Below are positions 1-17,424 of a stretch of DNA of 35,314 nt, piece after piece. Below the pieces are notes generated by a model. That model did not search any database. It was not told where the DNA came from and was given only the letters and a program-made list of their open reading frames with translations. This DNA comes from Pseudomonadota bacterium (GTDB lineage: Bacteria; Pseudomonadota; Gammaproteobacteria; Burkholderiales; Burkholderiaceae_C): positions 1 through 35,314 of the forward strand of contig JAFEFZ010000256.1 in NCBI GenBank assembly GCA_018240325.1, written 5' to 3'. Made by a program: the position numbers and the translations under genes. Within the stretch, counting starts at the first letter, position 1. Each line of letters opens with the position of its first letter.

Positions 1-46
1 GTGGCCAACGGAGTGAATAAGAATTTGGCTGAACGGAGTTGGCCAC
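1..46. repeat. Hairpin repeat with conserved 28-nt loop, copy A (left end cut by window)
   Basis: Arms 1-9 (GTGGCCAAC) and 38-46 (GTTGGCCAC) are perfectly complementary and enclose a 28-base loop at 10-37. The loop is identical to that of the copy at 8048-8129 except for one base. The arms differ from that copy yet remain complementary to each other. The left arm may continue beyond the window. It lies downstream of the minus-strand yajQ gene, so it could act as a transcript-end structure, but there is no T-run. Complementarity and loop identity are seen directly; function is unknown. Confidence 0.8.
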
Positions 47-186
47 CCCGTCGGCGGCCCCGTGCAGCACGTTTTCGCGTGGGAGCGACCGCACGCGGTG
101 AAACGATGAACGACCGCAACGGGCCTCCAGTCGGCAGCGAAGGACTGGGTTTCAACATGGGGATTGCCGCACCGGCCGCAGCGGCA

Positions 187-5798: not shown

Positions 5799-5952
5799 TC
5801 CAGGCGCAGGCGCGCGCCGCCGATCGGCTGCGCCCCGCCGGCAGCGGCCCATGCGCCGGCGCGGGTTTGTCCTGATCCAGCCGCCGGCGCGTGCAGGCCG
5901 CGCATCGGCTATACCGGCCGACCTGTCCACTGCGCACTGCCTGCCGCCTGTC

Positions 5953-7653
5953 ATGACCGAATCGACCCGCCCCCATCACCGCATCTGGCCCCGGCGGTTG
6001 CCGCGCGAGCTGGCCGTGCCGCAGACTTCGCTGTGGTTCAACCTGGCGACGGCCGCCGCCCGCTACCCCGACAAGGCCGCGTACCGCTTCTTCGGCCGCG
6101 CGCTGAGCTTTCGCGAGCTGCACGCCCAGGCCGAGGCGCTGGCCGGCTGGCTGCAGGCCGCCGGCGTACGTGCCGGCGACCGGGTCGCGATCTACCTGCA
6201 GAACTGCCCGCAGTTCGTGGTGGCGCTGTACGCGATCTTCCGCGCGAATGCGGTGGCGGTGCCGGTGAACCCGATGAACCGCGCCGACGAGCTCGGCCAC
6301 TACATTACCGACCCGCAGACCAAGGTCGTGATCTGCGCGGCCGACCTGGCCGGCTTCGTCGACGAGGCCAACCGCGCGCTGCCCGAGGCGCAGCGGCTCG
6401 CGGCGGTGCTGGTCACGCGCTATACCGATGCGATGCCCGAGGGCCCACTCGACCCGGCGGAGGCGCCGAGCCCGGCGATCGAGCAATGGCTGCGCGCCGA
6501 ACACCCGCTGCCCGCGGGCGGCGTGCGCTGGGCCGACGCGCTCGCGGCCGGCCATGCGCCGGGGCCGCACACCGCCGGGCCCGGCGACCTGGCGCTGCTG
6601 CCCTACACCTCGGGCACCACCGGGCTGCCCAAGGGCTGCATGCACACCCACGCGACGCTGATGCACAACGCGGTGTCGGGGCAGTGGAGCCACAGCGGCC
6701 CCGAATCCGTGGGCCTAGGCGTGGTGCCGATGTTCCACATCACCGGGATGATGCTGTGCGCGCTCGGCCCGGTGTTCACCGGCTCGACGCTGGTGCTGAT
6801 GCCGCGCTGGGACCGCGAGCTCGCCGGCCGGCTGTTCGCGCGCCATGCGATCACCCACTGGACCTGCATCCCGACGATGGTGATCGACCTGTTCGCCAGC
6901 CCCAACTACAAGCGCTTCGACCTGTCGAGCCTGCGCTACATCGGCGGCGGCGGTGCGGCGATGCCGCACGCGGTGGCGCAGCGGCTGCAAGACGAGTTCG
7001 GCCTGACCTTCGCCGAGGGCTACGGCCTGACCGAGACTGCCGCGCCCAGCCACAGCAACCCGCCCGAACGCGCGAAGCTGCAGTGCCTGGGCATCCCGTT
7101 CTTCGGCACCGACGCGCGCATCGTCGACCCGGCCAGCTTCGAGGAACTGCCGCCGGGGCAGGACGGCGAGATCATCGTCCACGGGCCGCAGGTGTTCACC
7201 GGCTACTGGCGCCACGCGCAAGCCACCGAAGCCGCGTTCATCACCTTCGAAGGCAAGCGCTTCTTCCGCACCGGCGACCTCGGCCGCATGGACGACGAGG
7301 GCTACTTCTTCATCACCGACCGGCTCAAGCGGATGATCAACGCCAGCGGCTACAAGGTCTGGCCGAGCGAGGTCGAGCTGCTGCTGTTCAAGTGCCCGCT
7401 GGTGCAGGAGGCCTGCATCATCGGTGCGAAGGACGAATACCGCGGCGAGACGGTCAAGGCCGTGGTGGTGCTGCGCGCCGAGGCCAGGGGCAGCGCCACG
7501 CCCGAAGACATCATCGCCTGGGCGCGCGAGCACATGGCGGCGTACAAGGTGCCAAAGATCGTCGAATTCGCCGATGCGCTGCCCAAGTCGGGTTCGGGCA
7601 AGGTGATGTGGCGGCAGCTGCAGGACCGGGAGGCGCAGGGCAGGACCGGCTGA
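5953..7653 (+). CDS. AMP-dependent acyl-CoA synthetase (fatty-acid--CoA ligase type)
   Basis: The 566-residue enzyme belongs to the ANL adenylating superfamily, which activates a carboxylic acid with ATP and forms its CoA thioester. Signature motifs in order are the ATP-binding loop YTSGTTGLPKGCMHTH (near 217-232), the A5-type motif GYGLTETA, RTGDLGRMD, the hinge region TDRLKRMINASGYKVWPSEVE, and the C-terminal KSGSGKVMWRQL containing the adenylation Lys. Overall similarity is to medium/long-chain fatty acyl-CoA ligases; chain length preference is not visible. The ATG at 5953 begins the conserved N-terminus, with in-frame sequence upstream looking non-coding. No clear Shine-Dalgarno precedes it. 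A stretch containing CTATACC about 45 bases upstream could be a -10 element. It stands alone: the next 594 bases hold only repeats. Confidence 0.93.
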   Translation: MTESTRPHHRIWPRRLPRELAVPQTSLWFNLATAAARYPDKAAYRFFGRALSFRELHAQAEALAGWLQAAGVRAGDRVAIYLQNCPQFVVALYAIFRANAVAVPVNPMNRADELGHYITDPQTKVVICAADLAGFVDEANRALPEAQRLAAVLVTRYTDAMPEGPLDPAEAPSPAIEQWLRAEHPLPAGGVRWADALAAGHAPGPHTAGPGDLALLPYTSGTTGLPKGCMHTHATLMHNAVSGQWSHSGPESVGLGVVPMFHITGMMLCALGPVFTGSTLVLMPRWDRELAGRLFARHAITHWTCIPTMVIDLFASPNYKRFDLSSLRYIGGGGAAMPHAVAQRLQDEFGLTFAEGYGLTETAAPSHSNPPERAKLQCLGIPFFGTDARIVDPASFEELPPGQDGEIIVHGPQVFTGYWRHAQATEAAFITFEGKRFFRTGDLGRMDDEGYFFITDRLKRMINASGYKVWPSEVELLLFKCPLVQEACIIGAKDEYRGETVKAVVVLRAEARGSATPEDIIAWAREHMAAYKVPKIVEFADALPKSGSGKVMWRQLQDREAQGRTG

Positions 7654-7845
7654 GCGTGCGCGCCGCTTCGGTTGCGCGGGCGCGCCGGTTGGTCTACGTG
7701 CAAGGCCTGGGCCAATTGGGAGCAGGCACCGTGCGCCGTCGTACTCCTCGGTCCATCGCTGTCGGTTCGCGGCCCGTTGCAGTCTTTGCTCGATCCACCA
7801 AGAGCAGCCTTCCGCACGTCTTTTCTTGGCATACGGGGCCGCGAC
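7654..7845. other. Gene-free stretch between the acyl-CoA ligase and the repeat composite
   Basis: This is part of a 594-base interval without a credible gene. Short open frames cross it on both strands, but they lack recognisable domains and ribosome-binding sites and do not keep the GC-rich third-position pattern of neighbouring genes. It looks less GC-rich than the flanking genes. It runs straight into the inverted repeats starting at 7846 and may be part of the same intergenic repeat unit. Confidence 0.5.
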
Positions 7846-7955
7846 GGGGTGGCCGACTGCGTTCAGCCCAATTTCTTCTTGGCTCCGGCATCACATCGCT
7901 GCGCGATATGAGCCTTCACCGAAGCGCTGCGCGCTTTCACTGCGCCGGCCACCCC
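7846..7955 (-). repeat. Degenerate copy C of the conserved-loop hairpin, inverted
   Basis: On the minus strand the segment 7886-7858 aligns with the 28-base loop of copies A and B (shared blocks GGAG, AAGAA, GGCTGAACGCA). It is flanked at 7846-7857 by GGGGTGGCCGAC, whose near-complement GCCGGCCACCCC lies at 7944-7955 with one mismatch. Between the loop motif and the second arm sit about 57 extra bases absent from the other copies. It is inverted relative to copy B, 92 bases away. Confidence 0.6.
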
Positions 7956-8047
7956 GCCGTCGGCCCCGGGCGGTGGTGTGCCGACGCTGCTGTTTGCGCG
8001 CTGCTCGATGCAGTGGGGGTCTGCTGAAGAAGCGCTCAGGCGGTGCC

Positions 8048-8129
8048 GGCAAAGCCGGCAAGGGGGTGGCCGGCGGAGTGAATAAGAATTTGGCTGAACG
8101 CAGCCGGCCACCCCCTTGTCGGCTTTGCC
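8048..8129 (+). repeat. Conserved-loop hairpin repeat, copy B (complete)
   Basis: The arms 8048-8074 and 8103-8129 are 27 bases each and complementary at all positions except one that would form a G-U pair in RNA. They enclose the 28-base loop 8075-8102, identical to the loop at window positions 10-37 except at one base. The inner stem reads GTGGCCGGC/GCCGGCCAC here and GTGGCCAAC/GTTGGCCAC in copy A, so two adjacent base pairs have changed on both sides. It lies in the interval between the acyl-CoA ligase and the convergent DUF924 gene, where it could also stop transcription from both directions. Confidence 0.85.
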
Positions 8130-8247: not shown

Positions 8248-8859
8248 TCAGAACCCCGAGCCCGGCTGCTTCAGGAACTCGACTTCCTCGGGCGTCGACG
8301 CGCGGCCGAGCGCTTCGTTGCGGTGCGGGAAGCGGCCGAAGCGCTCGATGATCACCGCGTGCTTGTGCGCCCATTCGAGCAGCCCGGCCAGCGCCGGCTC
8401 GTCGTCGCCGAGCTGCGCGAACAGCCGCATCGATTCGCGCTGCATCGCCGCGTCCTCGGCGTGCTCGAAGGGCAGGTAGACGAACTGGCGCTGCACGCCC
8501 GCCAGGGTGCGGTCGGCGCCGCTCGCCACCAGCGCCTGCGCCGCGGCGAGCGCGCGCGCGTCGCCGGCGAACATGCCGGCCGTGCCGCGCGCCGAGTTGC
8601 GCGTGAACTGGTCGAGCACGAGGATCTGCGCCAGCGCACCCGGCGGCTGCGCCGCCCAGTGCGCGAGCCCGCCGCGCAACGCCGCGTCGATCAGCGTGCC
8701 GAAGCGCGCGCCGATCGCGGCGTCGAAGGCCTCGTCCTTGCGGAACCATTCGTCGCGCGGCTGCAGGTGATGGGCATCGCCGGGGCGGCCGAACCAGAAA
8801 TCCAGCACCGCCTGGGCGTGCGGGTCGATCGCGGGGGTATGGGTCGCGGCGGGCATCAT
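8248..8859 (-). CDS. DUF924 family protein
   Basis: The 203-residue soluble protein matches DUF924: AVLDFWFGRPGD near the N-terminus, DEWFRKDEAFD, LDQFTRNSARGTAGMFAGD in the middle, FVYLPFEHAEDAAMQRESM, and AHKHAVIIERFGRFPHRNEALGR near the C-terminus. The family is all-helical and TPR-like, and its biochemical role is unknown. Two ATGs lie in tandem (8859 and 8856); the first overlaps the TGA of the GNAT gene by four bases (ATGA), supporting translational coupling within the prolyl oligopeptidase operon. It is the last gene of that operon and faces the repeat composite. Confidence 0.9.
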   Translation of the reverse strand: MMPAATHTPAIDPHAQAVLDFWFGRPGDAHHLQPRDEWFRKDEAFDAAIGARFGTLIDAALRGGLAHWAAQPPGALAQILVLDQFTRNSARGTAGMFAGDARALAAAQALVASGADRTLAGVQRQFVYLPFEHAEDAAMQRESMRLFAQLGDDEPALAGLLEWAHKHAVIIERFGRFPHRNEALGRASTPEEVEFLKQPGSGF

Positions 8860-9137
8860 CGCTCCAGCAGGTCCTGGGTGTCGGGGTGGCGGCGCATGTA
8901 CACCTGCACGTACGAGCACACCGGCCGCACGCGCAGGCCTTGCGCGCGCGCGTAGACGAGCGCTGCGCGCACCAGCGCGGCGGCCACGCCGCGGCCTTCG
9001 GCGGCGTGCGGCACTTCGGTGTGCACGATGTCCATCACGCCGCCGCGCAGCCGGTACGCGCATTCGGCAGTGCCGCCTTCGACTTCGGCGGCGAAGCGCG
9101 CCGCCGCCGGCTCGTGCCGGACTTCGATCTCGTTCAT
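8856..9137 (-). CDS. Small GNAT family N-acetyltransferase (YjdJ/COG2388 type)
   Basis: This 93-residue protein has the compact GNAT core of the YjdJ-type family: Ala-rich opening, AECAYRLRGG, DIVHTEVPHAAEGRGVAAALVRAAL (acetyl-CoA pyrophosphate loop around EGRGVA), then a short C-terminal helix-strand ending RPVCSYVQVYMRRHPDTQ. Full-length GNATs are about 150 residues; this family is naturally short. The acceptor is unknown. The start ATG overlaps the TGA of the upstream peptidase (ATGA), and its own stop overlaps the DUF924 start, so the three genes are translationally coupled. Confidence 0.88.
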   Translation of the reverse strand: MNEIEVRHEPAAARFAAEVEGGTAECAYRLRGGVMDIVHTEVPHAAEGRGVAAALVRAALVYARAQGLRVRPVCSYVQVYMRRHPDTQDLLER

Positions 9138-17263: not shown

Positions 17264-17424
17264 AGAGGCTGAGAGGCTTTCGCCCATGCCCGCCTTGCAC
17301 GCCGGAACACGCCGGCTCGTCGTTGCAAATGCTCGCCATAGCTCGAGCTATGGCTGCGCTTTGCGCCTAGTTCCGACGCGTTCCGGCGCGCCTTTCGGGC
17401 ACGGCCGAAAGCCTCTCAGCCTCT
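17264..17424. repeat. 161-bp imperfect palindrome with perfect 19-bp ends and 20-bp centre
   Basis: The outer arms 17264-17282 and 17406-17424 are perfectly complementary over 19 bases (AGAGGCTGAGAGGCTTTCG and its complement). The centre 17335-17354 is a perfect 20-base palindrome (core CCATAGCTCGAGCTATGG). The regions between arm and centre are also largely complementary (blocks around TGCCCG, CGCCGGAAC, GCAAA). The whole unit is symmetric around 17344. It begins directly after the crotonase stop codon. It could be a REP-like or MITE-like genomic repeat, a terminator, or both. No transposase is present. Confidence 0.85.

What the first reader, a model, noticed from the sequence alone, without database searches (positions are those of the whole stretch)
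1..46. Hairpin family with a fixed 28-base loop and covarying arms
Two hairpins in the window (1-46 and 8048-8129) have loops identical at 27 of 28 bases, while the stems differ but stay paired: GTGGCCAAC/GTTGGCCAC against GTGGCCGGC/GCCGGCCAC. Usual REP/BIME elements conserve the stem more than the loop. A conserved single-stranded loop with compensated stem changes suggests selection on a folded RNA or DNA form, or an element that uses palindromes as insertion sites.
Basis: partly seen in the sequence, partly recalled or inferred. Interest (0 to 1): 0.72.

Follow-up and report, generated by a model that had tools for sequence, protein, structure and literature searches.

The report
Paired-hairpin mobile repeats with shared loop
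A bacterium carries dozens of copies of a small mobile-looking DNA element made of two facing hairpins that share one loop sequence while their stems change but stay paired, which hints that something unknown reads the loop and only needs the stem to fold.

Summary
The 26-base loop core occurs 54 times in the window's own genome (44 exact; reversed control 0). Copies are halves of a ~0.35-0.5 kb interspersed element: two hairpins, A and B, inverted, loops about 156 bp apart in short-loop pairs. The window holds three hairpins, not two: 8048-8129(+) has a long-loop partner at 7832-7970(-). In 60 aligned hairpins from four genomes, 18 of 27 stem pairs show changes on both sides and 89.6% of cells stay paired. 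Loops and arms are roughly 3-8 times less diverged than spacer and flanks between two species. Five copies sit in narrow gene junctions; hflK-hflC has a 459-base gap here, and no loop was found at that locus in 31 relatives. The family is abundant in 4 of 81 genomes of the genus. Two further genomes hold elements of the same plan with another loop and other stems; in four of four pairs the loops agree and the arms do not. I read it as a non-autonomous mobile element, REPIN-like in plan but without the REP-associated transposase in this genome. Loop recognition is inferred. Template-switch repair is a serious rival for the covariation.

The parts
1..64 (+). hairpin of class A, outer 5' arm lost at the contig start; inner stem 1-9/38-46, loop 10-37, rest of the 3' arm to 64
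   Evidence: model R1 71.7 bits, truncated at 5'
65..153 (+). A-side outer flank of element 1, similar to the same flank of other copies; ends about 35 bases short of the stop codon (187-189) of a DUF520 (yajQ-like, name recalled) gene on the minus strand
   Evidence: end judged by eye from the flank comparison
7742..7831 (+). A-side outer flank of element 2, between an AMP-binding gene (ORF 5851-7653, +) and a DUF924 gene (ORF 8248-9063, -)
   Evidence: boundary by eye
7832..7970 (-). class A hairpin with a long (85-nt) loop, partner of 8048-8129
   Evidence: 43.3 bits, E 5e-8 over 68,343 bases; z -7.8
7879..7938 (+). stretch inside that loop holding a palindrome that also occurs alone in other genomes of the genus
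7971..8047 (+). spacer between the two hairpins of element 2
8048..8129 (+). class B hairpin, 27-bp stem (8048-8074/8103-8129), 28-nt loop 8075-8102

Best explanation
It is a family of small non-autonomous mobile elements. SHOWN: dozens of dispersed copies; inverted pairs of hairpins; stems that stay paired while changing; a loop shared by the two hairpins of a pair; hairpins much less diverged than spacer and flanks between two species; presence between adjacent genes at five sites that lack it in the relatives read; high copy number in only a few of the genomes held for the genus. INFERRED: a transposase or recombinase acting in trans, not identified, recognises both ends as folded single strands or cruciforms. 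It reads the loop, so both loops must agree, and needs the stem only as a shape, so arms may change together. INFERRED: survival at gene junctions follows because insertions elsewhere break genes, and because one flank carries a ribosome-binding-like GGTGGAG just before the start codon of the next gene.
For: 54 loop copies, control 0. Covariation: 18 of 27 pairs changed on both sides, covariation score 0.329 against 0.176 shuffled (0 of 500) and at most 0.170 in slid versions. Changes on both sides also occur within a class, in about 5 of 27 pairs in A and 10 of 27 in B, some resting on one copy. Divergence between 9 G000 and 10 G093 elements: loops 0.066 and 0.094, arms 0.058-0.152, spacer 0.461, flanks 0.420 and 0.443. 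In G000 the hflK-hflC, hisC-hisB, sbp-cysT, oppC-oppD and SDR-thioesterase gaps are 459, 496, 456, 367 and 354 bases; none of 31 hflC loci and none of 17 loci for the other four genes in relatives holds the loop (sequences). Model matches: 50, 57, 30 and 22 in G000, G093, G016 and G022, at most 12 in each of the other 77 of 81 genomes. A second family with the same plan: in four of four pairs the loops agree at 53-59 of 67 (0 of 300 shuffles each), the arms at 13-18 of 27 (51-270 of 300 shuffles).
Against: No transposase tied to the hairpins was found: 0 Y1_Tnp matches in G000 and in G084, and no transposase among 8 ORFs scanned around second-family elements. No consistent target duplication: of five junctions only hisC-hisB has an exact TGACATG on both sides. 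Copies were mostly collected through the loop, which overstates its constancy; class B loops of G016 differ from class A loops. Three G022 hairpins that pair poorly were left out of the alignment. Class A pairs poorly in its outer four positions. Loop recognition is untested. Sequence homology between the two families is not significant.
Confidence: 0.6

Rival explanations
1. The pattern is made by mutation, not selection: template switching during replication repairs one arm from the other, and gene conversion between the two inverted loops of an element keeps them alike.
For: Template switching can create and maintain perfect stems with multi-base compensatory changes (PMC8794818, abstract). 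6 of 60 hairpins are mosaics of A and B arms. Long-loop variants occur in both A and B hairpins.
Against: Spacer and flanks diverge far more than arms and loop between species, which conversion of loops alone does not explain.
Confidence: 0.3
2. It is a REPIN/BIME family moved by a REP-associated tyrosine transposase (RAYT, Y1 HUH) that is lost from, or missing in, these draft assemblies.
For: Inverted doublets, ends better conserved than spacer, compensatory changes and extragenic sites are REPIN traits (PMC3116915, section 10 part 1). G016 and G022 each have one weak Y1_Tnp match.
Against: 0 Y1_Tnp in G000 (98.8% complete) and in G084, which I equate with G093; both carry high copy numbers. 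The G016/G022 genes have no such loop in the fetched stretches of about 3.2 kb. No conserved GT(A/G)G head at the foot of the palindrome.
Confidence: 0.15
3. The hairpins act as RNA: transcribed stem-loops that stabilise or process operon mRNA, with the loop bound by a protein or small RNA.
For: Very stable RNA folds; several copies lie between co-oriented genes.
Against: Because the pair is inverted, any transcript carries one sense and one antisense loop. Element 2 of the window lies between convergent genes. No Rfam family at gathering score in 13 sources. Relatives do without the element at the same junctions.
Confidence: 0.15
4. The loop is a site-specific recombination site: inverted loops let the middle invert and let elements exchange halves.
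For: Six mosaic hairpins of both reciprocal kinds (4 AB, 2 BA) in two species; in the three of G000 the switch from A to B lies across the loop (rows by eye).
Against: In the three mosaics of G016 the switch lies inside the left arm, not in the loop (rows by eye). Ordinary homologous exchange would give the same. No element with two mosaic hairpins, as expected after inversion, was seen complete. (Odds lowered from 0.1 after this recheck.)
Confidence: 0.07

Closest known systems
REPINs (REP doublets forming hairpins), Pseudomonas and other RAYT-bearing bacteria (PMC3116915)
   Same: Inverted doublet, extragenic, spacer less conserved than ends, compensatory changes, non-autonomous, many copies
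   Different: Hairpin units are 82 nt with 27-bp stems and a 28-nt loop rather than short REPs; the loop, not a GTRG-headed palindrome, is shared by both ends; no RAYT found in the genome
Bacterial MITEs (for example Correia elements, RUP, ERIC; recalled apart from search listings)
   Same: Few hundred bp, non-coding, dispersed, partly palindromic, insert between genes
   Different: No terminal inverted repeats matched to an insertion sequence and no consistent target duplication found here
BRE, Beta-proteobacterial repeat element (PMC3110155, passages)
   Same: GC-rich intergenic repeat in beta-proteobacteria suspected of mobility
   Different: About 90 bp, sometimes tandem; its sequence was not readable here, so kinship could not be tested

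Membership tests
REP/REPIN | linked RAYT (Y1_Tnp, PF01797) in the genome | tested here: not met
   0 matches in G000; 0 in G084; one weak match each in G016 and G022, with no such loop nearby
REP/REPIN | GT(A/G)G head followed by a GC-rich imperfect palindrome (PMC2817692, passage) | tested here: not met
   GTGG/GTAG occurs inside the stem (alignment columns 19-22), paired, and is GCGG in the G084 class B rows
REP/REPIN | inverted doublets with compensatory changes | tested here: met
MITE | short non-coding dispersed element absent from orthologous sites in relatives | tested here: met
   (five sites)
MITE | target-site duplication of fixed length | tested here: inconclusive
   exact TGACATG on both sides in 1 of 5 junctions, partial likeness in three, none at sbp-cysT (by eye)
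MITE | ends matching an autonomous element | tested here: inconclusive
   no longer copy with a gene between the hairpins among those read; many copies end at contig edges, and no transposase family other than Y1_Tnp was searched genome-wide
Known structured RNA | match to an Rfam family | tested here: not met
   0 at gathering score in 13 sources; in 6 further sources only sub-threshold microRNA models
BRE | sequence similarity to the published ~90-bp repeat | not testable with these tools
   no sequence found in the readable text

The most novel reading that the evidence does not exclude
A class of mobile element whose two ends are large hairpins told apart by stem but recognised by a common loop. 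The loop cassette is renewed in both ends together, so that different lineages of one genus carry different loops on the same two-hairpin frame. It is moved by an enzyme that is not a Y1 REP transposase and is still unknown.
Probability: 0.27. Interest if true: 0.78.

Novelty: new variant of a known kind. Interest (0 to 1): 0.55.

Why it matters
If the loop is the recognition site and the stem only a shape, the family is a natural experiment on how structure-reading DNA enzymes find their ends, with dozens of hairpin copies per genome to compare. It also shows repeats splitting tight gene pairs while both genes keep a stop and a start. And it gives a test case for the open question of whether stem covariation proves selection or can arise from template switching.

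Tried and rejected
RAYT-driven REPIN: Y1_Tnp absent from G000 and G084. Known RNA family: none at gathering score; in six sources searched by E-value only microRNA models far below their cut-offs, treated as chance. Phage or plasmid carrier: no exact loop match in viral contigs; no similar stretch in plasmids or phages at E 1e-5. Autonomous partner: none seen. Of the flanking ORFs found around four second-family elements I scanned 8; all were ordinary metabolic or regulatory genes. Homology between the two families by sequence: not significant, arms reached by 29-242 of 500 shuffles and the long loop by 87 of 500. (downstream-flank query) was badly designed: I joined a flank consensus to its own reverse complement, so its counts are not used. 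One search split some of the eight second-family hairpins a few bases out of register; one search repeats the pair comparison with fixed register and shuffles, and its numbers are the ones given. The 28-bp loop as a dif/Xer site or the hairpin as an integron attC site: considered from memory only, not tested.

Of the other 89, one search kept 63 distinct complete short-loop hairpins, leaving out 13 truncated, 10 identical and 3 long-loop ones. Alignment A1 then used 60 of the 63: I left out L082, L087 and L088 (G022), which pair at only 13, 16 and 13 of 27 without gaps. They are degenerate or carry an indel and would lower the pairing figure. In one search pairs 1, 2 and 4 fail in 24-27 of 60 rows, pair 3 in 13 and pair 11 in 37.

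Full report
SETTING. The window is the whole of contig C173 of a 4.18-Mb draft genome in 321 contigs, 98.8% complete. Two relatives with the same loop come from records titled Burkholderiales bacterium UWPOB_RUBRI1 and RUBRI2, a third from Proteobacteria bacterium CTSoil_113. From contig lengths and coordinates I equate RUBRI2 with G016, RUBRI1 with G084/G093 and CTSoil_113 with G022/G085. That the genus is Rubrivivax-like is only a guess from the isolate names.

THE OBSERVATION. Both hairpins are as described, and the loop core occurs twice in none of 100 shuffles. The own genome has 54 loop matches with up to 3 mismatches, 44 of them exact, against 0 for the reversed pattern. A search with 80 bases of the first hairpin also gives 54 places, many at contig ends, as expected of a repeat that breaks assembly. 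Where two short-loop halves lie on one contig the loops are inverted and about 156 bp apart. Nine G000 elements were complete enough to extract; other loops stand alone, at contig ends or after internal deletions.

ANATOMY. Class A hairpins have arms like GGCCGACGGCGGGGTGGCCAAC/GTTGGCCACCCCGTCGGCGGCC; class B have GGCAAAGCCGACGAGGGGGTGGCCGGC/GCCGGCTACCCCCTCGGCGGCTTTGCC. Both loops read outward from the spacer. Some copies of either class have a long loop that contains a palindrome also found alone in other genomes of the genus. Outer flanks are mosaic. At gene starts they often end in a hairpin and GGTGGAGCAACTGANATG; the motif has 22 matches with up to 3 mismatches in the genome against 1 in the control, some at loci with a different repeat instead of A/B.

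COVARIATION. I aligned 60 hairpins from G000, G016, G022 and G084 (rows dropped: see Tried and rejected). 89.6% of 1620 cells pair (shuffled 80.9); 18 of 27 pairs have changes on both sides (shuffled 12.2, none of 500 reaching 18); further pair types 40 (shuffled 34.9, 2 of 500 reaching it); the covariation score is 0.329 (shuffled 0.176; best slid version 0.170). Relatedness of the rows is not controlled by these shuffles. Part of the signal is the A/B split, but within class A (29 rows) about 5 pairs and within class B (25 rows) about 10 pairs still show Watson-Crick types differing on both sides, some in a single copy. In G084 several pairs of the class B stem have changed and stay paired (rows L056-L060). 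Against this: the outer four pairs of class A mostly or often fail, and pair 11 fails in 37 of 60 rows. Six rows are mosaics of A and B arms; the switch lies across the loop in the three of G000 and inside the left arm in the three of G016 (by eye).

WHAT IS CONSERVED. Nine complete G000 elements and ten G093 elements were compared. Between species, loops differ at 0.066 and 0.094 per site, arms at 0.058-0.152, spacer at 0.461, flanks at 0.420 and 0.443. Within a species the spacer differs at only 0.12-0.14. This is what separate bursts from different source copies would give, with the hairpins being the part that must be kept. Caveat: copies were found largely through their loop, and class B loops of G016 have drifted from the class A loop. 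The region comparison found no G016 or G022 pairs with its pattern, so it rests on two species.

MOBILITY. In G000 the gaps hflK-hflC, hisC-hisB, sbp-cysT, oppC-oppD and SDR-thioesterase measure 459, 496, 456, 367 and 354 bases (gene names are my reading of the translations). Of 31 hflC loci in relatives none holds the loop (up to 7 mismatches). The hflK-hflC gap could be measured in 20 of them: 19 have 0-19 bases and one (G014) has 95, filled by another repeat; 11 could not be measured by the script. Of 17 loci for the other four genes none holds the loop; not all of these 17 need be true orthologues. The ends of the insert lie next to TGA and ATG, but a target duplication is exact in only one of five (TGACATG at hisC-hisB).

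DISTRIBUTION. A covariance model of the hairpin matches 21 of 81 genomes of the genus at E 0.001, with 50, 57, 30 and 22 matches in G000, G093, G016 and G022, 2 in G101 and at most 12 in any other. These are matches, not hairpins: some hairpins match on both strands. At most 57 candidates were scored per genome, so G093 may be undercounted, and the stricter filters lose weak matches. No exact loop match was found in viral contigs, and nothing similar in plasmids or phages.

A SECOND FAMILY. The weaker matches in G067 and G009 led to elements with the same plan: two inverted hairpins with about 27-bp stems and loops of about 67 nt that contain an inner hairpin. I read parts of 35 G009 contigs and 5 of G067, so counts there are not complete. 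In four of four pairs the two loops agree at 53-59 of 67 positions (0 of 300 shuffles reach it in each), while left and right arms agree at 13-18 of 27, reached by 51-270 of 300 shuffles. In one first-family pair the loops agree at 27 of 28 and each arm at 19 of 27, reached by 23 and 27 of 300. Sequence kinship between the families is not significant. The neighbouring genes scanned were ordinary.

MECHANISM. Shown: dispersal, pairing kept, shared loop, presence at sites empty in relatives. Inferred: both ends are read through the loop by one enzyme, and the stem is only a shape. The inverted arrangement favours action on DNA, since a transcript would carry one loop and one antiloop. The obvious enzyme, a Y1 REP transposase, was not found in G000 or G084; G016 and G022 have one weak match each, without such a loop in the fetched stretch. 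Other transposase families were not searched genome-wide. Rivals are listed. Template switching (PMC8794818, abstract and outline seen) is the strongest and is not exclusive.

LITERATURE SEEN. PMC3116915: abstract, outline and section 10 part 1. PMC2817692, PMC3110155 and PMC2267715: passages. The rest: search listings. Nine searches listed no paper that I recognised as describing this family; most subscription papers are not held, so absence from print is not shown.

VERDICT. Real, mobile-looking and structurally unusual; closest to REPINs in plan but failing two of their defining features. New variant of a known kind, interest 0.55.

Noticed in passing
G000 C30:360-430, C190:25790-25860, C73:2246-2312, C180:9847-9866 and others: A repeated stretch ending exactly at start codons (hairpin, GGTGGAGCAACTGA, N, ATG) upstream of unrelated genes, also at loci without the A/B element, where another GC-rich repeat takes its place.
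   Followed up: partly
window 7879-7938; L048, L049, L050, L052, L080: Palindrome TTGGCTCCGGC..TCACATCGCTGCGCGATATGAGCC inside long loops, also alone in several genomes of the genus.
   Followed up: partly
L142 (G014), between hflK and hflC: A different GC-rich repeat inserted at the same junction, flanked by an exact direct repeat CCTGACATGA.
   Followed up: no
L149 (G022, oppC-oppD) and L196 (G093, SDR-thioesterase): Other GC-rich repeat-like sequences occupy junctions where G000 has the hairpin element, as if several repeat families share these sites.
   Followed up: no
L026, L038, L039 (G000); L077, L079, L081 (G016): Mosaic hairpins with one A and one B outer arm, both reciprocal kinds.
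   Followed up: partly
L169 (G016), L170 (G022): One weak Y1_Tnp-like gene each, in similar gene surroundings by eye, without the loop in the fetched stretch of about 3.2 kb.
   Followed up: partly
window 17264-17315 and 17373-17424: Another long inverted repeat, 52-nt arms 83% complementary, 57 nt apart.
   Followed up: no
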